A stretch of 64,000 nt of DNA, from contig HG738148.1 in assembly GCA_000499405.2 (NCBI GenBank), positions 7,803-71,802 of the forward strand, read 5' to 3'. The notes under the pieces were generated by a model that saw only the letters and a list, made by a program, of their open reading frames with translations, searched no databases and had not been told where the DNA came from. Positions 541 through 34,989 of this stretch are shown here, piece by piece; the first letter of the stretch is position 1; every line of letters starts with the position of its first letter. The DNA comes from Onchocerca volvulus (lineage: Eukaryota > Nematoda > Chromadorea > Rhabditida > Onchocercidae). The translations under genes were made by a program, and so were the position numbers.

Positions 541-880
541 TCCCCAACAAATGAAATCTGTTTCAACAATATTATAATCAATATTAGTAATTTATAAAAT
601 CGATTCATCATATGTTTTCCACAATTTTAATCCATGTTTTTGGCCACTAAAGGATTGATAATGACCAGTACATGGCGACGCGGCCTTATTAAGCCGTTGG
701 TTAAATGTGCTGAAAATCGAAAAATCGGTGATCATTTTTCAAATCAATTTTTTATTGCTAACAAATTGTATTAAAATAAAATATTGATCTGTTGTTTTTT
801 TTTTCTTTATTTAGCAACTAATCAAATTGAAGAGTCTCGATTTCCGATATATCATCATTAGTGTATTCAAATTATTTGAA
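541..880 (-). pseudogene. sphingosine kinase exon copy, frameshifted
   Basis: This block aligns along its whole length with 22680-23025, which holds the ATP-binding exon of the sphingosine kinase gene downstream plus parts of both flanking introns. The encoded start (PRRHVLVIINP) is preserved. One G is missing directly after the NP codons, so the copy shifts frame, loses the SGQKHG glycine motif and reaches a stop within seven codons. No other kinase exons lie beside it. Because intron sequence is included, the copy arose at the DNA level and not through mRNA. It sits directly against a copy of zinc-finger flank DNA, an order not found at the source. Confidence 0.85.
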
Positions 881-7402: not shown

Positions 7403-8758
7403 GATTTGGATTCGTTTAAGCGATGATTATGATAAGTGTTTTTAACAAATTTAAACATTTAATGAATAAATAAAATGAATTTTCTCATATGTAAACAGCA
7501 ATTAGCAGCAATTTTCTTTTACTTAATTTTTTAATTTGATAAATAAAACGATATTTTCTTTCTTTTTCTTTTTTTTTCAAGCATTTTTAATATCAAAATT
7601 TTGCAATATTTAAATATTTATTATTTACGAAAAATTTCTAATAATACTGATAATTTTCATTTTTCATATTTTTTGATTTGTTGACTGCTTAAAATACATA
7701 ATCAAATAATCGATCAATAGCATTTAACGATACTTTTGTAATTTATTTTAAAGCATTTGACAAATATATGTATATTCCATTCTTATTTCTAAATCATAAA
7801 TAGAAGACATTAAAATTACATTTTACTTAAATATTTTTGAGTTTTTTCCGTTTTTTTTAAATTTTTATTATTTTACAAAAATATGCAACGTTTATCTTCA
7901 TTATACATTAATTGCAATAATTTTTAATTTAAAAAATTGAAAGTCCAAGTTACTTTATTTTGAAAGAAACTTTTAATTTGTTTATATCTTTTATTAATAC
8001 TCAACGGATTCTTAATTATTTTAATTGTTACAAATTCAATTAATTTTCGCAAAATTTACCAATTTTTTCGAATCGATATTTCGAGATTTCATTATTAAAA
8101 TCATAAATCTATATGATTGTTTTGTGGATTAACCTCTTTCTTTTAATTCGTTACCACTTCACACTTTCCTATAATTGTTCAATTATTTCATCTCATCTTG
8201 TCAATTCATATTTTTCAAATCGATCGATCGATTCGTCCTCCCATTGTTCAACTTGGTAATTCGTCTTGAAATACTGCCAATATTTGATTTTTCATAGAAT
8301 TTGAAATTTATCCTTTTCTGAAAATTAATTTTCAATAAAATATTCGATAAAAATGTTAGTTTTACAATGTGTAATAGTTTGGATACACATTATTTCACAG
8401 AATCTTAATTTCTACATAAAATAATTCTTTTATAATTAAAATATTTTTCATCACGCTCAGTATTGATTAATTTATTTCCTAAAGCATCTAATTAATTTAA
8501 GCTTTCTATTAATTAAATATATCTATTCCTTCATCATTGTATAATTCCAAAAAAAATTAATTTTAATCTTGTTTTTTATTTTTCTATTTTCTATTTTTAA
8601 TAGAATTTATCCATCCACATTAATTCAACTTTCTTACAGAAAAAAAAAAGAATTAGACTAATCTTGACAAAGTTGATGAAAAAGATTGACATGAATAAGT
8701 TGACAAATAAAATTAATTAATATAAATAAAGATGGCGAAAAAATAGAAATAAAGTAGG

Positions 8759-14715: not shown

Positions 14716-15717
14716 TCAATTTGATTCGAAAATTTTATGAGTTTCTTGAAATTTTGTCAAAATGTTAGTACTAAAGTTAGTAAATTTTCTCAACAATCAA
14801 AAAATAAGATGCTATTAGCAAACCGCTAAAAATGAAGATATCGACCAAAGTTCGGAAATATGAAAAACAGTTTCGCAACATAATATTTTTCTCTTTTTTA
14901 AGTTAACTTTTATTGCGAACTTTTTAGAAAAAACTGCGTCTTTATTTCTTTAAGTAGGCATATGACTTCAGATTTAAACAAAATGTAAAGGCTAGAATGT
15001 TTCGAATTAAAAAATTTATTCTTAAATTATCTTTATAATTTTGCAAAAATTGCTCGACGAAAATAATTTCAAAGATAGATTAACGTTTTTATGGGTGAGG
15101 TATTAACAATATTGTGGAATATCAAAACAATGAATGAATGAAATCAAAAGAAATGAGCATTTTATTTCTAATAGGCATCAATAATAATTATGATTATTTA
15201 GAAGTAAGCAATTACAATAATATCAATAATAAACTGTTTGCTGTAAAAATTCATTAAATTGCGAGAATTCAATTGAAGACATGCATCGATAATAGGAAAA
15301 TATTGAATCTTATATTCATTTCATGAAATTTTGGGCCATTAATTTTGGGCCACTATTGTACCTTTTGGGTATCATTATTTTCTTTTGTATTTAAATTTGG
15401 TCTATCTTGGCTGTTATTTTGCAACGCTTACCTTGCGCCTAGAATGAAATTATAGCAGGAAAATATTGAATCTTATCGTCTAATTTTTTTTCCTATCGTT
15501 TAATTTTTGCGTTATTTTGCACTCTATTACAATATTTTTACAAGGTAGCCCCCTTTATCCATATAATGTGAAAAACACACTTATAAAATGTCAATTAATC
15601 ACAATGACTAGAATTAGCAATGAATATTAAATTTTAAATCCAACTAGCTGTTTTTTTTCATCGAACCGTTTCATATATCTCTTAAAATTCCACTTTCATC
15701 TGAAATTTTAACTACAT
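14716..15717. other. intergenic between zinc-finger pieces
   Basis: No gene recognised. A segment near 15250-15300 resembles 51786-51830, suggesting that the two zinc-finger pieces share flanking DNA. Confidence 0.45.
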
Positions 15718-16452
15718 TTAGTGCAAATTGGACCTTCCCTTACAGCTACTTTTCTGGTGCCTTTTCAAACTAGATGATAGTGAAAACTTTTTGCCGCATA
15801 ATTCGCAACTGTGCGGCTTTTCCTTGGTATGCGTTAGCATATGCCGCTTCAAATTCCGTAATCGAGAGAAATCTTTTCCGCATATCACGCATAATTTCAA
15901 CTTCATACGAGCATTTTCATCATACATATGCGGTTTATGAATTCGCATGTGCCATTTTAAATAAAACGGTTGAGAGAAATCTATTCCACATATCGCACAA
16001 ACAAATAATTTCTCTTGGATATGAGTAGGTATTTGAGATTGCAAATGTGATAATCGAAGTAAACGCCTTATGCAGCTGTCATAAAGCCAGAGCTTCTTAT
16101 GAACTAGCCAATGGGATTTCAAACATTTTAATGTTTTGAAATTTTCCCCGCAATCCAGACAACTGTGCATCTTCTCTTCAGTACGATTCAGCATCGCAAT
16201 TTCCAAATTTTCTACGAATTCTCTTTGGCTTTTATCATGGTTAATTTCCTTTTTTTCATTCTCTTCCTGGATTAATAAGTTCCACAAATTCGTTCCTTGT
16301 TTTTCACTTTCTTTTGAAGTTGATGAGCCAAATAGTCCTTTTTGTTTCTCACTAACTTTTGATAAATCCAATGGTTCTGTTTGTTCCGGTTGTGCTTCTT
16401 TCTTACTAACTTTTGATAAATCCAATGGTTCTGTTTGTTCCGGTTGTGCTTC
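15718..16452 (-). CDS. C2H2 zinc-finger protein with PLDLS motifs, 5' end unresolved
   Basis: One long open exon of 245 codons, ending at 15718-15720. The N-terminal part carries the motif PLDLSKVS twice inside an 18-residue tandem repeat; PxDLS is the known docking motif for the CtBP corepressor. The middle is Glu/Lys-rich. The C-terminal half holds fingers starting CLDCGENF, CAICGIDF, CVICGKDF and CELCGKKF, plus a degenerate unit between the first and second that has lost its first cysteine. The last finger ends in Cys instead of the second His (C2HC). A role as a DNA-binding transcriptional repressor is inferred. There is no in-frame ATG before the first PLDLS motif. An AG at 16453-16454 would act as splice acceptor, so an upstream first exon is expected but was not found. 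Part of this exon and its flank is duplicated at 0.9-3.1 kb. Confidence 0.75.
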   Translation of the reverse strand, partial: EAQPEQTEPLDLSKVSKKEAQPEQTEPLDLSKVSEKQKGLFGSSTSKESEKQGTNLWNLLIQEENEKKEINHDKSQREFVENLEIAMLNRTEEKMHSCLDCGENFKTLKCLKSHWLVHKKLWLYDSCIRRLLRLSHLQSQIPTHIQEKLFVCAICGIDFSQPFYLKWHMRIHKPHMYDENARMKLKLCVICGKDFSRLRNLKRHMLTHTKEKPHSCELCGKKFSLSSSLKRHQKSSCKGRSNLH

Positions 16453-18055
16453 CTCAAATTATATGACATTATTCATTTCAAACTGTGTTAAAAATTTTGA
16501 AATTTTTGAAAAAAAAAAGTTCTGTCTTTTTTCTCTTCAAAAACTTAATGAACTTACAACAATTCGTATGTTGCACAGTTGGATGAGAAGAAATAAGGAA
16601 TAAATGAAATGCATATTGATTGTCAATATTCAAATTAACAGTACGCTGAATGATTGGATGAAAATTGCTTGGTGAAGAATTTTTCCTTAAATAGTATTGA
16701 AAAAATAATGGTCTTGTTGTTGAAATATGGCATATCTAAGTCAAATCATAAACATAACAAGTTATTCGTACCGAGAATGAGCGATACTATTTATTCAAAG
16801 TTTTTTTCATAATTTGCGTAAGTAATGAAGAAATAGTATTGCAACGGAAAGAAACAAACCTATGAAATTGATTTTAAAAAAAAGTTTTATTTAAAAAATA
16901 ATGCTTATTTACACGTTTATCTTCAAGTTGTAAAATCTTTCGTATAATATGAAATTCTAAAAAGCGTTTAACATTGCGTAATGTGATAAATGAAATAAAG
17001 TGAAATTCGCAGGAGAGAAATCGTAAGCCTTGACTGCTGAATACCGAAAAGATCGCACGTATAAATGCTTGTCATTTGGACGTCGCAATCCACGTGTATT
17101 AGAAGTGATAATTCACGTGTGATAATGAGATTATGCAATCAAATTTTTATTGTCATTATTTAATCCTTTATATGAATAAATTTTATTTTATTTTTTCAAA
17201 TATTTTTCTTTTTACTTTTGTTTGAATTACTTCACTGCATTGTTCAAAAATTTATGCAAAGCTTTCATAAAATTTTTCATAATTTTATTTCATTTCATCA
17301 TTATTTAATCCTTTATAAGAATAAATTTATTTGATTTACTGCATTGCATTGTTCAAAAATTCATTCAAAACTTTCATAACATTTTTCGTAATTTATTTGA
17401 TTTCTCTTCACTTTTTCCAAATTTTCGAAATTGAGGCGATATTAGTGAAAGAGAAAACTTGCAGTGATATATCTATTTTGATTTATATATGCTGAAATGG
17501 TTTTCTAAATTCTTTTGCTCGGATTTATATACCCTTGCACAAAATTAAATTACTTTATCAAATTTAGTTTTCAAATTTGACATGTGGCAAATGTGTATAT
17601 ATATATGTATGGTTAAAGTGCATATTAAGATTAAAGTCAATTAAATTAATAAATTTACAAGAATAAAAATGTAATTACTAACTGACAGCAAGAAAGAATT
17701 TACAATTTTATATTGATCAAGCATTCAAAATATATTGCTTTATTAATTCAAAGCATCATATTTGAACTGTTTTGTGTTTAGTATTGCATAATTACATTAT
17801 ATTAAATTCAATTATCAATCATATACATGGAATTTAAATTAAAGCAAATTTGAAGATAGAAACTATGGATATTTCCATTAAAAAAAAAAAAAAAAAACAA
17901 TAATACAAATTAAAGTAAATAAAACTATAAAGTAGACAAATCAAGGGTGTCTTTTTGGTGTAATGCAATAATTTTCATTTTAATCTCAAAATCAATTTTT
18001 TTCTATTCCATTTTAAAGTTGGAAATCATGAAATTTAAAATTGCTATGCCACTTA
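16186..18055 (+). repeat. segmental duplication, source copy of 900-3095
   Basis: Partner of the block at 900-3095. It contains the 5' part of the zinc-finger exon and about 1.6 kb of upstream DNA. Inside it, about 17152-17290 and 17301-17430 are a further local tandem duplication (both start with a TTTAATCCTTTATA-type segment). No exon for the zinc-finger start could be picked out here. Confidence 0.8.
16348..16455 (-). repeat. 54 bp in-frame tandem duplication
   Basis: Two almost identical 54 bp units (16351 and 16405 start the same hexamer ACTAAC) encode the repeated 18 residues that carry PLDLSKVS. The unit length keeps the frame, and the near identity implies a recent event. The partial copy at 0.9-1.06 kb holds a single unit. 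Confidence 0.9.
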
Positions 18056-19077
18056 TAAATCTCATGATGGATGAATTTGCTAAACAAAATAAAATTTATA
18101 TAGATTGAAAGCTAGAAGGCGATGAAAATTTGCAAATATTTGAGGTTACGATCAAATTTTATCAAAAAAAAAAAAACCCGCTAAAAAAATTTGTCTGACA
18201 AATAATAAAATGAAAAAAAAAAAAACCATTTCTTTGAGAGAAATTTTATTGTACTGCTATATTTATCACATATTGTTAAATATGTTAAATATATATTGTC
18301 ATCCTAACAATCGTATATATTTATAATTATGTTAGAAATTGAAATTCTACTGACTGAAAAAGCCTTTTTTATTGTTTTTCATATTGTGTCGATGAGAAAT
18401 ATAATAGCACTTTGCATTTTTGGAAATAATAGATTACTCAAATACTTAAATCAATTATTGTTTCACGAAGTGATTGGCAGTGATTAATTTCGCATTCGTT
18501 TTATTCTGACCTTTTATACTTCTTGAATAGAACCAATAGATATGGTGTGACAAATTGGCACTCAAACTTGTTCAAATTAATTCAATTTGAAGTTCAATAT
18601 TTCGTTGCTAATTGCTTCTTGACTTGAGTTCAATAACTTCATGCTAACACACAATGATCTATGCAGATAACTTCTATTTAATTGGACATTTTAAGATCGA
18701 TCATGCTTGATTTAGATGATTATATAAGATCTTCGTTCTTATCAGAATCATCTAATATTTTAAAAAAACAGATTGAATTCAATTTCCAAATAAATATCTT
18801 CAAAATTGATACGAAATTCCATGTTAATCTATCGAAACGAACGATAGCTCCATATGATTACATGATAAATGGCCGCGTAAATTCATATAACAATTATTTG
18901 AGTGTGTTGTTTTATTGCATATATATAATATACAATTAATTGTTGAATAAATCATAATGTTAGCTAATGATTTCAAATATATATATATATCAAAATTTCA
19001 AATATTCCAAAAGTCAAAGATTTGCAATACTGATAAAAAAAAAAAGATAATAGAATTATATCAGTCATTAACAGTAA
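18056..19077. other. intergenic, downstream of sphingosine kinase
   Basis: Apart from the hypothetical small frame, nothing is recognised. A TTTATT at 18911-18916 gives AATAAA on the minus strand and could be the poly(A) signal of the kinase gene that ends at 19078. Confidence 0.4.
18703..18939 (+). CDS. hypothetical 78-residue protein
   Basis: An ATG-initiated frame of 78 codons plus a stop, preceded at 18659-18666 by a CTATGCAG acceptor-like site (possible trans-splice site) and followed by AATAAA at 18946-18951. The sequence opens with an acidic MLDLDDYIRSSF and ends with a hydrophobic tail. No family is recognised. The small size and AT-rich composition mean it may be chance. Confidence 0.25.
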   Translation: MLDLDDYIRSSFLSESSNILKKQIEFNFQINIFKIDTKFHVNLSKRTIAPYDYMINGRVNSYNNYLSVLFYCIYIIYN

Positions 19078-22000
19078 TCAGTGTCGTTGTTTCCGTCCAA
19101 TAACTGTTGTACAATGTCTGGTTGGTGTCACTTGAAATGCTGATCCAGATGTTATTGGTTCGCCATCTACGGTTACATAACCACCACAATTGTCTAGTGG
19201 TTCTACACGACAAGCTCGAACTGGGATTACCTGCAATTTCTCATCATAAAACTTTTTCGAAAAAGCTTAGGAAATGCAAAACGGACAGTCAAAGCATTAG
19301 CTCGACTTGCCCTTATAAACAAGGAAAGAATAAAGAAAGCTGATTNNNNNNNNNNNNNNNNNNNNNNNNNNNNNNNNNATAGAAGAAAAAATTTGAACAA
19401 TTAGCTTTCTCATTTCTTTCTTCTGCCGAATATGGACCATATAATGTAATATTTGAAATACCATTTTGGATTTCAAATTTCAAATTTACTTAATATTTTG
19501 GTGATTTAATGCCTTCTGATAATTATGCGTTATATGATTTGCATTATGTTTCAATCTATTAGTTATTTGAACAACGAACCAATTGTTGTATAAGTTGTTA
19601 ATTAAATAATTAAGAAAAATAATATTTGCTTACTATAAAAACTTCTCATCAAGTATTTTAGCTAAAATACTGACTGATCGAATGGTTAGCTAGTCAATTA
19701 TCATACTAAGAATGGATGTTCAGCAAACTCCTTTAGAAATTATCATAAAAAAGAATCAATCCATCTATCAATCAATGCATGATAAACAATTATTTAACAG
19801 ATCAATAATCTATTTTAAAGAGAAAGAAAAAAAGATGGGAATGAAAATGAATTGAAGCTTTTGGAAAAAACAGACGAAATTGATAAGAAAGAACCTACCT
19901 AAATGAGAAAGACTTGCCAAACAAATGTATACGAAGTAACCTTCGAGTATATTCCAGTCCGATCCGACAGGTTCACAGAGAGCAGGCATCTACGGATTGA
20001 TTAATTTATTTCTAAAGAATTTTCCATGTCCAAGTCTAATTTTAGAAAAAGACGAAGTTCAGAGATATTAAATTTTGGTACAAATTGCTCAACCTTTAAT
20101 AAATGATGCATGATAATTTCTTAAACATTCTTGAAATACTACATTTGTTAGAAATGATTATATTTCCATTTCTGCCTAAATTTCGACTAGATCTTAATTT
20201 TGGTTTACTGTGACTTATCATTGAAAAATGCTTTAGTTTGAAATCAAATTCCGAATTTTCATTTGTTAGAAATGATTATATTTCCATTTCTGCCTAAATT
20301 TCGACTAGATCTTAATTTTGGTTTACTGTGACTTATCATTGAAAAATGCTTTAGTTTGAAATCAAACACCGAATTTTTTTGATCACTTTCAATTATTTTT
20401 AAGAAATTTGTCTTCTTAATATTTATTATATACTGCCTTACATTTCACTTCTTTTTTTCACATTAATTTGAATAATTAATTTTAATTAAATATATGGAAA
20501 AATTGAAATGTTCTACTTGCACAAGATCACTGCTTCCAAAAATATCCGAGAAACTATTATTGATGCTATTATTTGCTTCACCGCATTTGAAATTCGTGAA
20601 ACTCTCAACGGGCTGATAATCAAAATGACCTTTGGCATATTTTTCACGTACCAAATCATTCCTAAATTTGATGTTTTCCTTATAAAATGATAAATTACGG
20701 TAATATCAAACATTTCTCACATATTAAGCTATTTGGCAATATTATCAGATTAGTCAATTCCATCAATGGTTAAAAAATTTTCAATGTTAAATGTGTACCT
20801 TAATGTTAATAATGGAAATGATAATTCAAACTTAGACCGATCATTAAAATTCTTATGTTTCAGTCAGAATCTACACTATTTTCAAAGAAAACTTTTCGAA
20901 AAAAAAAAAAAACTTTCTAAAGCCGAGAAAAAAAAGATATTACCATAACTTTGTCGAGTACTGCAAAGCATCACCGTGAACTGGCAAGTAGGAAATCCTG
21001 CCTTTATAATGAGCAACTTGTGGTAATTCTAGAAAACGAGCAATATAAAATCCGAAGAAAAAAATTGCGAAATACTTAAAAATCATTAAAAACGATTATT
21101 TGTCATTTTTTTTTCGCCTTTTTTTTTTTTTTTTTTTGTCAAAAAAAATTACTTGTAAATCGTAGAAAGGCTTCCATATGCAATCGTGCCATACCAGCCC
21201 AACGAAAACGTTCACTTGCGATATCTTCAAATTATTAATATTAATTAAATAATTTCATATTTACATTATATACAAAGAATTCGTTGAGTATTTTACTTAT
21301 AAGGGAGACTTATTGTTGTCGGCTTTATTGATAACACTCGAATCGTACATTAAAAATGATATTTGAGAGGAACTGATATCGAAAGAAAAAAAAAAAAAAG
21401 AAGAAAGAAAAAAAGATGATCAAGAATAATGAATAGTTATCATAAAACTGAGGAAATATGAGAGAAAATATCTAGCGTATGTTAGAGTAAAAGTTTTTTT
21501 TTTTTTTTTTTTTTTTTTTTATTTATCAATTTCAGCAAATTAATTATATAATCAAGTGAATTGCAATACACAGTACTTTTAAATTGAATACTTTTAAAAT
21601 ACTTTTTAAATTTAATTTTTTTTTAAAAAATTATCTCAAAACTATCGTTATACAAAAAAACATTTATAACATTTAGCTTTGGAAACAAAAAAAAAATTAG
21701 ATAATTTATGGCATCAATAACTGAATTGAAATGAATGAATATAATTGAGTGAAACGAACCAATATCAGCAAAAAGACCCCAACAAACTGCCATTAACATC
21801 GCCTTATCACCATCATGTTCCGTTTGTACATGATTGATACGTAATGGAAGATAACGTGGTTGTGCCAACATCAGAGCCATTTCGGTACAAAAAATCCCAC
21901 GTGGAAGAAATGGTTCACTGAAAATTAAACGTTGTAAATGAAGTTAGTTGTGAATTATTGCTTGTGCTATAAGAATTCCCTAAGAGGAATGCTTGATATT

Positions 22001-24148
22001 ACTGATAATATAGCTGATGATAAAATAACTCCGCCAAAAAATGTGATTAGATATGATGAAGATAATGCATACTTAGTAGTTACGGCAGATAACGGTACTG
22101 CTTCATTTTCTGATTATGCTAATCAAATAGCCTCTGATTATCATTTTTGGCTTCGTGATACATTTGAATCTGGGTGGATCAGCTGATTATGATCACAAAA
22201 AGATGGGTATCATGGCCAGAGGTGCATGGATTGCAGCTTGCTGATAATTTTATTATTTTTTTATTTTTCGTTCAATCACATAATCAGCAATCAATCAATT
22301 AAAAATTAATGGAAATTTTTAGCACATCTTACTTGCATTGAAAGCATATACTGGCTGCAAGTCCATTACATGTACCACCAGGTATATGAGCTAACGGCAT
22401 CTTTAATGCCCGTTCACGATCCTGTCGCATCAAAAAACCTGATATTATTTCCAGTATCAATCCATCACCACTAACAACAGCTACAGCATCATAGGTATCG
22501 AGTTTAAGATCCTTTGCTATTTCAAATGCATGTCTTCGATGAACTTAAAAATTTTTAGAAGTTTTAATTAAATTTTGTCGAAAAAAATAATTGATTAAAT
22601 CACATATACAAAACTGCATGATTTTAACAAATTTAAATGATAAAAAAAAAAAAAAGAAAAAAAGAGAAGATGAAAGTGGGAAAAACTAATGAAACCTGTT
22701 TCAATAATATCATAATCAATGTTGGCAGTTTGTAGAATCGGTTCAACATGAGTTTTCCATAATTTTAATCCATGTTTCTGGCCACTAAACGGATTAATAA
22801 TGACCAATACATGGCGACGTGGCTTTATCAGATTGTCGGTTAGATGTGCTGAAAATAAACAAATCAGTGATTCATTTATCAAATCACTAATTTTTTATTG
22901 CTAACATGTTGTATTAGGATAAAATATTGACCTGTTATTTTTTATATTTAGCATATTGAATTATTATCTCTTAAAGAGTATCGATTTCCGGTATACCATC
23001 ATTATTACATTCAAGTTATGTGAAAAGAATTTGAGTTATACGAAAATTTGTGTTCTTTATTATTTTTTTTTCATTTAGGAATTGTTGTAGAATTTAAGAA
23101 ATTTCCAAAAAAAGAAAAAAAAAATGAAAAAATTCAATTTTTTTTTCTTGACTAAGAAACCAAAAAATCATTAAAAAATTTATTTATCTTAACAAAAATT
23201 GAAATGAAATCAAATCTACTTCTGTACTTACGTGCCCTTAATGCCGTAATTTTTTTGATAATGAATTTATTTGTACGATTCACTGTTTCTTCGCAATTGA
23301 AAATTAATGAAACTCGAACAAAACGGCGTCTTTCTTTAATGACAGGATAAGTTATTAAAATAAGCTGCCACTCGTTTATCTCTTTAATATCATCTAAAAT
23401 AATTTCATTTATGAATTGTCATTCGAATAAAATCTGAGAGATTTTTATAAAAATAAACGATAATTTAAGAAATCATTTATAATTCAATATTTTCCATTAT
23501 TTTTGATTAGATTTTTCCTGATTGCTAAAAGATAAATTCTGTCCTTTGCTTAAGATAATTCAATCAACAATCAGATGGATAGATTCGATAATCTTAAAAA
23601 TGATTAAATGATTGAGAAAATAGGTTGAAATATGAAATAATCGTAAATGTGCACACATGATTACTTTCCTACTTTACTTTATCCATTCGAAAGCATATTT
23701 CTCATAATATATTTTTACTTTTTACATCATAATATTTTATGAAAAATTTTTAAAAAATATGGCATAAGCTAGCTGAAATGATATTTCAGAAATAAAATGG
23801 TCATATCAATTTTTTCTCTTTTTTTTTGGAAAAAAATAAATAAATAAATAAATAAAACTAAAAAAAAAAAAAGAAAAGTAAATGAAAACGTACGATTGAG
23901 AGATGCGAATTTCGACATTAAAATATCATCATATTTCATTTGTATGAAGCAATTTTTGGCAAATTTAAAACGAATTTCATCATTTGTTTGCAAGCAAGCA
24001 TCTATTTTAAATCGTTTTTTGTTAAGATAAACGAAATTTTTAATTTCATGTAGCGAATCATTCACCATATCGTTGTATGGTACATATTGTTTAGAATTAT
24101 CCACTTTTGAGATTTCTCCACCCATTCCATTCAATTGTAATATGATTT
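19078..24148 (-). CDS. sphk-1: sphingosine kinase
   Basis: This enzyme phosphorylates sphingosine to sphingosine 1-phosphate. Exons, with matching phases: 24148-23894, 23393-23232, 22848-22696, 22543-22333, 21917-21760, 21224-21153, 21028-20944, 20661-20517, 19989-19899 and a last exon ending at 19078. Family marks include RRHVLVIINPFSGQKHG (nucleotide loop), VVSGDGLILEII (catalytic SGDG), IPGGTCNGLAAS, GLFADI, HYKGRISYLP, VIPVRACRVEP and VTVDGE near the C-terminus. An N-terminal extension of over 100 residues precedes the catalytic core. The first exon may begin at the in-frame ATG of MGGEIS or continue upstream. The last exon contains a 33-base gap and a one-base frame break at about 19254-19266. 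One intron holds a bacterial gene fragment. Assignment to the family is secure; only the start and the last exon are uncertain. Confidence 0.92.
19346..19378. other. assembly gap (33 N)
   Basis: A run of 33 unknown bases inside the last coding region of sphingosine kinase. The sequence on its left encodes a stretch resembling the LFYVRAGVSRA region of the family (here LFIRASRANAL), so the gap hides part of the C-terminal domain. Confidence 0.98.
20142..20367 (+). repeat. 118 bp tandem duplication in intron
   Basis: Two nearly identical 118 bp units (20142-20259 and 20260-20367) lie in direct tandem inside a sphingosine kinase intron. They begin with CATTTGTTAGAAATGATTAT. No coding content. 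Confidence 0.95.
21945..22237 (+). pseudogene. bacterial NAD-glutamate dehydrogenase fragment (likely Wolbachia transfer)
   Basis: About 290 bp on the plus strand, opposite to the host gene, encodes an internal piece of the large (about 1600-residue) bacterial NAD-specific glutamate dehydrogenase: LRGMLDITDN, PPKNVIRYDEDNAYLVVTAD, NGTASFSDYANQIA, FWLRDTF, then after one extra G (about 22174) a shift to GSADYDHKKMGIMARGAW. This enzyme type is found in alphaproteobacteria including Rickettsiales and not in animals, whose mitochondrial glutamate dehydrogenase is unrelated in this region. There is no start, no stop in the right place and a frameshift, so it is a dead fragment. It lies in the sphingosine kinase intron between 21917 and 22333, beginning within about 30 bp of the splice acceptor. 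Wolbachia as donor is inference from the worm-like host context; the bacterial origin is strongly supported by the peptide pattern. Confidence 0.85.
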
Positions 24149-26835
24149 CTAAATAAATGTTAAATTTAGTACTGATTAAATTTAATATACAAGAAATCGA
24201 ATATTTAATAAAATTTTTTGCAAAATATTGAGTGTTAAGAAAAGTGAAAAGTAATAACCATTCAAAAAAGTACTGTGAAAGCAAATGTGAGAAATTACAC
24301 ACTGATTCTTCAATAATGGACAACAAATAAAAATTTTTTGATTTCTGTTGTGCTGTCTGAAAAAAAAAAAAAATCTATTAATCAAATTTTCCAATGTTAA
24401 AATTTTTACTAGCACAAATAAGTTTCCGTTTCATTATCAATTAATTTATCAATTGATAATCATCTATCGTATGTATGAAAATTTCTCACTTTGCTACTAT
24501 AACAATATTAGATTGCATTTATAATTGAATACAAATATCAATATATTTAGCAGTTAAATGTTATTTCAAGTATCCACATATATGGAATATAAAATTAATT
24601 ATATTAAGAAATCAATAAATTTGGATATATTAAGAAAGTAATAATATATATATTCAAATATGTTCATGTGTATTCTACTATCTGAATAATTATTATTCAA
24701 AAAAGTAATTACCATTTTTTCAAAAAAAATATTTTTTCCAAAAAAATATTTGTGCAGTTACAGTAAAAAAAAAGTGGAAAGCATTTATCATTCAAAACAG
24801 TACTTTTAAGCCAAATGTGAAAAATTACAGACTGATTTTTCAATAATGGAAAAAATAAAAAAGAAAAACTTCTATAAATGATAATTTCCGCAAAAAAACT
24901 CGCAGGAATTCTACTTCTAAGCATTAAAGATGAAAATTTCTTGTGAAAATAAAAAAGGAAAAAAAGATATTTAAAAAAATGATATTTATCATTATATCAA
25001 TATGCTGATGATTTTTACTGAAAAAAAAAAAAACCAGAAATGATGAATTGTTGCAATTTTACCAAAATGACATTAAAAAAAAAAAAGAAAGACAAAATGA
25101 CGAATTTTTGTGACGATTGTTTCAAATTCAAATTTTAAGATATATGCGACAGTGATCAAAAGATATTTAAATTGATATTAATATAAAAGGAATAATTTTT
25201 TTTTTAGAAAGAAACCAAAATATTTCAGTCACCAATTTGATGAATGCAAAAAAAAAAAAAATAGAAAATTAAAAATTTCATTTCCGCAATCAAAAAAAAA
25301 AAAAACCTGTTTGTTTTTTAAAAACAAAACAATATTCATTTTATGTCCTTCAAATTCGAATGATAAATATATTCTTTAGCTTAATTAATTAGCAAAAAGT
25401 CTAAAAATTGAAAAATTTCAAAAATTGAAAAAAGGAAAAAAAAAACAATTATTGTTTATTTAATTGTTAGCAAATTCAGTTATTTAGTTATATATATATA
25501 ATTCTATATAGCGATATTTCTTTTCAGAAATAAAAATAAATAAATAAATAATTATATTTTAAAATTTTAAAACAAATAATAAACAATTTTTTTTCTTACT
25601 TTTTTTTTTAGGAAAAAATAAAAAAACAGAATAATGAAAACTTCTTTTTTCTTTTCCTAATCGATAGCAACAAGTATTTTTACCGCGGAATTTACCGCGC
25701 CTTCTCTCAAAGTATTTACAACTTTTTATGGATCTTCAGCTTTTTTTTTTTTTTTCTAAACATCGTAATGGATTATAAAGTTGTAAGTTAAACTTGCAAC
25801 TTTATGTTTCATTCTTTCTCACATTTTAATTCTTTCTTATATTTTTCTTTTGCAAAATTAATAATTTAATTTATTAATTTCTGCTATACTATAATAATTA
25901 TTGAAATTTCTAATACATATATTTTCTTGATAATTTAGTAAATATACAAAAAACATCTTACTTGGATGAAATAATTCCTGCAAGAAAGGAATGGCAAAAA
26001 AAATTAATGATTACTTGCACATTATTGACTTTTCGTCCAAAAAAACAATAAAAAAAAGAAAAAGAAAAAAAGGTCAAAGATCAATCTAAGACCGTTGACC
26101 ATAGCTTAATGTGATGGAAATGTTCGCATTTCGAATTAGAACCTATTAGAAAATATCACAAAATATCGCCAAAATGCTTCCTGTATGATTTTTAAATTTT
26201 TTCTTTTCCTTTTTTTTCCATAATTTTTTTATTTGCTAAATTATTTAAATATTTTTTCTATGATTTTTTCTGACATTTTTTTCATTAGTTTTTGTTATTA
26301 TAAGGCTAAAAAGTTTTATTTATTTATTTTTAATTTCTATACCGTTAAATAAATTGTTGTAATTGTTTCTGTTAGCATTTTTTTTTTCAAATTTTAATTA
26401 ATGTTTCATGTCATTTCCTATCATTCCATCGTTTTATTGATTCTGCTATCCTCAACTCTTCTTATTCAATCGTTTATGAACACACACATCTACACAACAT
26501 ACATACACATATATACACACATCCACATACAAAAATTAACAAAATGCTAAAATGAGGAAAGTTTTTGTCACAAAATTTGTAAAAAATATTAATTTTGTGG
26601 AAATAATGGATTTTTTTATTCTTTTTTTTTTGGAATTCATTTCTTCCTCTTTTTCAATTCTTTTTCGCTATCTTAGTTACTTTTTACTCTGTAATCTTTC
26701 AAATTTAATAAATCAAGCTTTAATTAACAAAGTATATGTTGTACTTACATTAATGAATATAATTTATGGAATGTAATTTTATTTTTTTTTTATTTTTTTC
26801 TATGGCTTCATTTATAAATTTTAGGAAATAACATG

Positions 26836-29390: not shown

Positions 29391-34989
<5,599 letters not shown>

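What the first reader, a model, noticed from the sequence alone, without database searches (positions are those of the whole stretch)
21945..22237. Bacterial NAD-glutamate dehydrogenase fragment inside a sphingosine kinase intron
A plus-strand segment encodes a contiguous internal peptide of the large alphaproteobacterial glutamate dehydrogenase (LDITDN, VIRYDEDNAYLVVTAD, GTASFSDYANQIA, then YDHKKMGIMARGAW after a one-base frameshift). It lies antisense in a host intron whose splice sites are intact on both sides. In a nematode this most simply means a nuclear Wolbachia transfer. It starts within about 30 bp of the 3' splice site of the 21917-21760 exon, so it could affect splicing or give rise to an antisense RNA.
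Basis: partly seen in the sequence, partly recalled or inferred. Interest (0 to 1): 0.85.

Follow-up and report, generated by a model that had tools for sequence, protein, structure and literature searches.

The report
Decayed Wolbachia gene scrap in intron
A 274-base broken piece of a gene from the worm's bacterial partner Wolbachia sits in an intron of a river-blindness worm gene, most likely as a harmless passenger; such pieces are already known by the hundreds in this genome, so it is ordinary, although some of its sister pieces look like striking patchworks.

Summary
Window 21964-22237 (+) is 90.1% identical over 274 columns to the NAD-glutamate dehydrogenase gene of wOo, the Wolbachia of Onchocerca ochengi. 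It lies antisense in a 415-base intron (22332-21918) of a minus-strand sphingosine kinase gene. The genome is very probably Onchocerca volvulus. It is a decayed nuclear Wolbachia transfer (nuwt): one extra base, differences at all codon positions. Splice signals are intact, the database O. volvulus protein leaves the intron out exactly, and an Elaeophora ortholog suggests the intron is older than the insert. Most likely a passive passenger; an effect on splicing or an antisense RNA is unsupported and needs RNA data. Nuwts are known here (531, or 653 regions, published). Five wOo stretches (24.7 kb) gave 71 matches. The unexpected part is elsewhere: 7 of 35 nuwt loci examined are patchworks of 4-18 short Wolbachia pieces from distant parts of its chromosome, many joined within a few bases, in mixed orientation. 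That favours shredding before or during insertion over later break-up of long inserts.

The parts
21964..22237 (+). Nuclear Wolbachia transfer: internal 274-bp piece of the NAD-glutamate dehydrogenase gene, one base inserted (22172-22174)
   Evidence: blastn 90.1% to wOo L004:7973-8245, 370 bits vs at most 50.9 in shuffled/reversed controls; Pfam PF05088
21918..22332 (-). Host intron 4 (415 bases) of the sphingosine kinase gene that holds the insert; donor GTAAGA at 22332, acceptor TTTTCAG ending at 21918
   Evidence: host parts 95 and 46 bases, G+C 0.23 vs 0.36 in the insert
22333..22543 (-). Sphingosine kinase exon 4 (SGDGL...PGGTCNGLAASICFQC)
21760..21917 (-). Sphingosine kinase exon 5 (EPFLPRGIFCTEM...FADI)
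20517..24125 (-). Sphingosine kinase gene, exons 1-8 as modelled here; later exons at 19897-19989 and 19081-19236
   Evidence: 406-aa model is 100% identical over its length to O. volvulus A0A8R1XQV6; DAGK_cat E 9e-23; human SPHK1 E 3e-35; tblastn of the Dirofilaria ortholog
15499..15591 (+). Second, shorter nuwt in the window: 88 of 108 aligned columns identical to wOo 99161-99268; no stop-to-stop frame of 100 codons or more overlaps that wOo place
   Evidence: 105 bits

Best explanation
A short piece of the chromosome of an ancestral Onchocerca-lineage (supergroup C-like) Wolbachia entered a germline nucleus and was joined into a pre-existing intron of the sphingosine kinase gene, in antisense orientation. 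Being only an internal piece of a gene, it decayed without constraint and is removed with the intron. It has no function of its own; the only visible change is a longer intron (roughly 140 to 415 bases). Shown: the Wolbachia origin, the position in the assembly, the decay, the intact splice signals. Inferred: insertion by end joining of a small fragment (by analogy with the patchwork loci), the order intron first then insert, and absence of effect.
For: 90.1% to wOo, 87.2% to wDim, 86.5% to wDcau, about 75% to Neoehrlichia and Mesenet. Tree of the three nuclear copies and 12 of the 28 bacterial loci: window, the two other copies and wOo on one side of a branch, support 89/87.9, not starred. 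The 26 differences to wOo fall 7/7/12 over codon positions and the 15 states found in the window and in none of those 12 rows 6/6/3, whereas live strains differ from wOo mostly at position 3 (e.g. wDcau 3/3/19, wLbra 4/4/29; wDim least clearly, 5/3/12). wOv is 99.51% identical to wOo (PMC5310847, passage), so 9.5% divergence does not fit present-day symbiont reads. Spliced exons give one open frame (with exon 7 end set to 20944), identical to the database O. volvulus protein. In 13 of 14 proteins aligned (of 64 found; O. volvulus itself and two Toxocara rows included) the residues either side of the intron are joined without insert; the 14th, Elaeophora elaphi, carries 19 extra residues exactly there, as if its annotation runs into an intron at that place.
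Against: No reads were available to exclude a chimeric join. The database protein may be a prediction and so is not independent proof of splicing. No orthologous intron of another filaria could be fetched, so intron-first rests on the Elaeophora protein alone. Tree supports are moderate on 285 columns, and an earlier tree with unmasked columns grouped the copies differently. One 6/7 acceptor-like site lies in the insert (22002) and one beside it (22241), so cryptic splicing is not excluded.
Confidence: 0.92

Rival explanations
1. The insert has been taken into use: it drives an antisense RNA or alters splicing of the sphingosine kinase transcript.
For: 46 bases from the 3' splice site; it makes up about two thirds of the intron; acceptor-like TTATCAG at 22002 inside and at 22241 beside it. 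Transcribed nuwts are reported in Brugia malayi (PMC3849323, passages) and Onchocerca flexuosa (PMC3549793, abstract start in listing).
Against: The database protein uses the normal splice sites; the only 7/7 acceptor and the only GTRAG donor in the intron are host sequence; sites of at least 6/7 inside the insert: 1 against 0.38 in base shuffles; no Rfam match at gathering threshold in 15000-25000; decay looks neutral.
Confidence: 0.05
2. Assembly artefact or contamination: a Wolbachia sequence joined to host sequence by mistake.
For: The contig is a small one (C13, 93,986 bases) and reads could not be inspected.
Against: 9.5% divergence from wOo with a frameshift, while wOv is 99.5% identical to wOo; the two sides are the two ends of one host intron with matching splice sites and phase.
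Confidence: 0.02
3. The window copy came not straight from Wolbachia but from another nuclear copy: three nuclear fragments of this same GDH segment descend from one transfer (compatible with the best explanation otherwise).
For: Copies at C2:27081286-27081612 and C3:24349525-24349633 overlap the same segment, with left ends within 22 bases in the gene; all three share a C at L004 position 8023 where all 12 aligned bacterial rows have T, and window and C2 share an A at 8169 where all 12 have G; the three form a weak clade, 81/75.
Against: The 401-base window query, with about 64 bases of flank each side, matched the two places only within the Wolbachia part (longer flanks not compared); the C2 copy lies inside a patchwork of other Wolbachia pieces; the shared inner branch is very short (about 0.01), so one or two sites, which an extinct donor strain could also have carried; the three were not a clade in the best tree.
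Confidence: 0.3

Closest known systems
Nuclear Wolbachia transfers (nuwts) of Onchocerca volvulus (PMC5310847; passages seen)
   Same: Broken Wolbachia pieces in this very genome; 531 catalogued by genome alignment, described as largely nonfunctional
   Different: Whether this copy is in their supplementary list could not be checked; an intronic, antisense position is not mentioned in the passages seen
Filarial nuwt survey 'Ghosts of symbionts past' (PMC12693587; abstract, sections 11, 16 and 18, part 1 of 2 of section 19, and passages)
   Same: 818 matches in 653 regions in O. volvulus at E below 1e-30; 96% supergroup C; nuwts duplicated within hosts noted
   Different: Patchwork order is not described in what I saw; 'mosaic' and 'intron' have 0 hits in its main text
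Nuwts of Brugia malayi (PMC3849323; passages)
   Same: Junctions in introns/UTRs occur but are depleted; one case of two adjacent nuwts from different Wolbachia regions
   Different: Two pieces there, against up to 18 in one patch here
Wolbachia DNA in Wolbachia-free filariae (PMC2882956; passages)
   Same: Pieces of about 160-175 bp on average; asks whether long inserts broke up or small pieces entered
   Different: Left that question open

Membership tests
Nuclear Wolbachia transfer (nuwt) | Best match to, and phylogenetic place among, Wolbachia rather than other bacteria | tested here: met
   (grouping with wOo 89/87.9, not starred)
Nuclear Wolbachia transfer (nuwt) | Lies in host nuclear DNA with host sequence on both sides | tested here: met
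   Both sides are one host intron between coding exons in the assembly; reads not testable
Nuclear Wolbachia transfer (nuwt) | Decay without constraint: frameshift, truncation, codon positions alike | tested here: met
   274 of 4,749 bp, one inserted base, 7/7/12 differences and 6/6/3 private states
Supergroup C origin | Nearest live relative is a supergroup C strain | tested here: inconclusive
   wOo nearest by identity and tree, but the branch is not starred and wDim did not group with them in the best tree (p 0.29 for holding them together); supergroup labels from PMC12693587
Sphingosine kinase (host gene) | DAGK catalytic domain and match to a characterised sphingosine kinase | tested here: met
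   PF00781 E 9e-23; human SPHK1 chains E 3e-35 over residues 141-347
Expressed or regulatory nuwt | Transcript from, or splicing change by, the insert | not testable with these tools
   No RNA reads held

The most novel reading that the evidence does not exclude
Many nuwts of O. volvulus arise from Wolbachia DNA that was shredded to pieces of about 100 bp and stitched together, in random order and orientation, at or before insertion: one patch (C4 around 4031036) holds 18 pieces from 17 sites more than 5 kb apart on the Wolbachia chromosome in 2.7 kb. The lone sphingosine kinase insert would be a single-piece product of the same process. This would answer, for these loci, the published question whether long inserts broke up later or small pieces were taken in.
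Probability: 0.75. Interest if true: 0.55.

Novelty: new member of a known kind. Interest (0 to 1): 0.27.

Why it matters
The insert itself matters little: it is one more fossil of an old symbiosis, useful as a dated marker if its presence is checked across Onchocerca species. The patchwork loci met on the way matter more. They suggest how bacterial DNA gets into an animal germline (small fragments joined in one step), and the similar age of the pieces within each patch gives a way to test it.

Tried and rejected
A better match outside Wolbachia: all 28 loci returned for the peptide are bacterial, Wolbachia first, but that collection holds bacterial and archaeal genomes only. The peptide's one Pfam match at E up to 1e-3 is the bacterial GDH catalytic domain. 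I did not search the peptide against animal proteins.

Nuwt at an exon edge in the C3 copy (L003): I suspected that the copy sits against an exon of an F-box gene. The O. ochengi protein P0065 joins the exons on either side (ARI|NFSEIE), so the copy lies inside an intron there as well. Rejected.

Weak wOo matches at window 30222-30273 and 32885-32941 (50.0 and 54.5 bits, near the best shuffles): both map to one wOo reading frame that I recognise as CTP synthase (name recalled), so I read them as host exons of a conserved gene, not nuwts; not tested further.

Microhomology at patchwork joins: overlaps of 5 or more in 7 of 37 close joins against 11% of 1,297 synthetic joins; overlaps of 2 or more in 14 of 37 against 29%; rank test p 0.63. 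No excess shown.

First tree included non-homologous columns of the C3 copy and grouped only window with C2 (82/85); replaced. First exon models had frame errors at exon ends; corrected, where exon 7 was still short by two bases (end 20944 used in the typed protein).

An Rfam scan of 15000-25000 at gathering threshold gave nothing. The literature listings (20 of 105 listed) showed, by title and abstract start, no paper on patchwork nuwts; the numt search returned no paper.
Full report
WHAT IS THERE. Window 21964-22237 on the plus strand matches the large NAD-glutamate dehydrogenase gene of the Wolbachia of Onchocerca ochengi (wOo, NC_018267.1; gene at L004:5436-10184, 1,582 codons) with 90.1% identity over 274 columns, 26 mismatches and one single-base gap, 370 bits. 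In the whole 64-kb window against the wOo chromosome (50 overlapping stretches) only two matches stand out, this one and a 105-bit match at 15499-15591. Twenty shuffles and the reversed window gave at most 50.9 bits. Two weaker matches (54.5 and 50.0 bits) fall in one wOo frame that I recognise as CTP synthase and are read as host exons.

WHOSE GENOME. The window lies in a 94.7-Mb assembly of 115 contigs. Its contig C3 is 25,485,961 bases, which is exactly the value listed for the O. volvulus assembly GCA_000499405.2 in the table of PMC12693587 (passage; I read that column as N50; the listed total is 96.3 Mb). The sphingosine kinase model is 100% identical over its 406 residues to an O. volvulus database entry. 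I take the host to be O. volvulus.

THE HOST GENE. On the minus strand eight exons from 24125 to 20517 make one open frame (exon 7 extended to 20944). Pfam gives DAGK_cat, E 9e-23; the best solved structures are human sphingosine kinase 1, E 3e-35. All 11 matches of the Dirofilaria ortholog in the assembly lie on contig C13, so this search shows no second allele without the insert. The intron that holds the insert runs 22332-21918: GTAAGA donor, TTTTCAG acceptor, phase 2; the joined codon reads N in the database protein. The host parts are 95 and 46 bases. Of 64 homologs found I aligned 14, among them O. volvulus itself and two Toxocara rows. In 13 of the 14 the protein runs straight across the junction. 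In Elaeophora elaphi 19 residues are inserted exactly there, which I read as its annotation running into an intron at the same place; if so the intron is older than the insert.

DECAY AND ORIGIN. I aligned the window, two other nuclear copies and 12 of the 28 bacterial loci. Against wOo the 26 differences fall 7, 7 and 12 on codon positions 1, 2 and 3. The 15 states found in the window and in none of the 12 bacterial rows fall 6, 6 and 3. Live strains differ from wOo mostly at position 3, for example wDcau 3/3/19 and wLbra 4/4/29; wDim, 5/3/12, is the least clear contrast. This is the pattern of loss of constraint. A tree of the 15 rows and 285 columns puts the window with wOo and the two other nuclear copies (89/87.9, not starred). 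Holding window and wOo alone together is not rejected (p 0.35), nor is adding wDim (p 0.29). wOv, the present symbiont, is 99.51% identical to wOo (PMC5310847, passage), so the insert is old and not contaminating symbiont DNA.

HOW ORDINARY IT IS. The wOo glutamate dehydrogenase gene as a query gives 19 matches in this genome at E up to 1e-3, the window's included, the longest about 450 bases. Four other wOo stretches of about 5 kb gave 16, 8, 9 and 19: 71 matches for 24,710 bases, 29 of them at E up to 1e-30. A 5-kb stretch of Neoehrlichia, a related genus, gave 1, at E 8e-7. Scaled to 958 kb this would be very roughly 2,700 matches. It is a rough figure: five stretches, two chosen because they are or adjoin the gene; some matches could be conserved host genes, two (L037, L038) look like one duplicated stretch, and at least one (L062) matches another place in wOo better. 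Published counts are 531 (PMC5310847) and 818 matches in 653 regions at E below 1e-30 (PMC12693587).

THREE COPIES OF ONE SEGMENT. Two more places, C2:27081286-27081612 and C3:24349525-24349633, hold the same part of the gene. All three share a C at L004 position 8023 where all 12 bacterial rows have T; window and C2 share an A at 8169 where all 12 have G. They may descend from one transfer or from one extinct donor strain; the data do not decide. The C3 copy lies in an intron of an F-box gene.

FUNCTION. In the intron the only GTRAG donor and the only perfect TTTTCAG acceptor are host sequence. One 6/7 acceptor-like site lies in the insert (0.38 expected by shuffling) and one just outside it. 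No Rfam family matches at gathering threshold in 15000-25000. With no sign of constraint or signal I take it as a passive passenger. An effect on splicing or an antisense RNA cannot be excluded without RNA data.

THE UNEXPECTED SIDE RESULT. I compared the 35 loci fetched for the first two wOo stretches (35 of the 71 matches; about 3 kb each; the window's own place among them) with the whole wOo chromosome. They hold 95 pieces, median 104 bases; 22 of 35 loci hold one piece, 6 hold two and 7 hold four or more. The largest, L053 (C4, around 4031036), holds 18 pieces from 17 sites more than 5 kb apart in 2,693 bases, 7 of 18 on the plus strand, 2,275 bases covered. L034, the C2 copy of the present segment, has 14 pieces of 40 bases or more from 12 sites. 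Of 59 neighbouring pairs that are not collinear in wOo, 37 lie within 20 bases of each other and 21 within 5; the others are up to 898 bases apart. The letter-reversed wOo sequence gave one match in the same loci. Identity to wOo is alike within a patch and differs between patches (seven patches, Kruskal-Wallis p 0.0006; means 75 to 99%; spread widest in L034, 75-95%, and L053, 72-93%), as expected if each patch formed at one time. Overlaps at the joins do not exceed those of synthetic joins (p 0.63). Later break-up of long inserts would not bring distant pieces end to end; shredding before or during insertion would. PMC2882956 (passages) left open which of the two happens; PMC3849323 (passages) describes one case of two adjacent pieces. 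I found no description of larger patches in the listings or in the passages read (supplements could not be read); nuclear mitochondrial patchworks are recalled as an analogy, and my search for them returned nothing. Limits: loci were picked by matches, so patches with many pieces are more likely to be met; some patches may run beyond the fetched 3 kb; reads were not seen.

VERDICT. The finding is true and ordinary: a new member of a known kind. Interest 0.27, raised somewhat by the patchwork loci.

Noticed in passing
L053 (G000:C4 around 4031036), L034/L002 (C2 around 27081286), L057, L052, L060, L054, L061: Patchworks of 4-18 short Wolbachia pieces (3-18 counting only pieces of 40 bases or more) from distant parts of the wOo chromosome, many joined within a few bases and in mixed orientation; 7 of 35 loci examined.
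   Followed up: partly
window 15499-15591: A second, short nuwt matching wOo 99161-99268 with three gaps (15 missing bases) in the alignment.
   Followed up: partly
window 559-707 (minus): A broken second copy of sphingosine kinase exon 3 sequence (two tblastn segments, the second with a stop), about 22 kb from the gene's own exon 3.
   Followed up: no
window 19237-19896: The exon for about 49 residues of the Dirofilaria ortholog (437-485) is not found; an N run at 19346-19378 lies there. The database O. volvulus protein ends in what looks like read-through of an intron, so its annotation is probably truncated.
   Followed up: partly
L037 and L038 (G000:C3:23836076 and 23799389): Two nuwts covering the same gene positions with the same score, 37 kb apart, probably a host segmental duplication.
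   Followed up: no
L054 (G000:C3:20628787): Pieces of 96-100% identity to wOo near each other: a young patch beside much older ones elsewhere.
   Followed up: no
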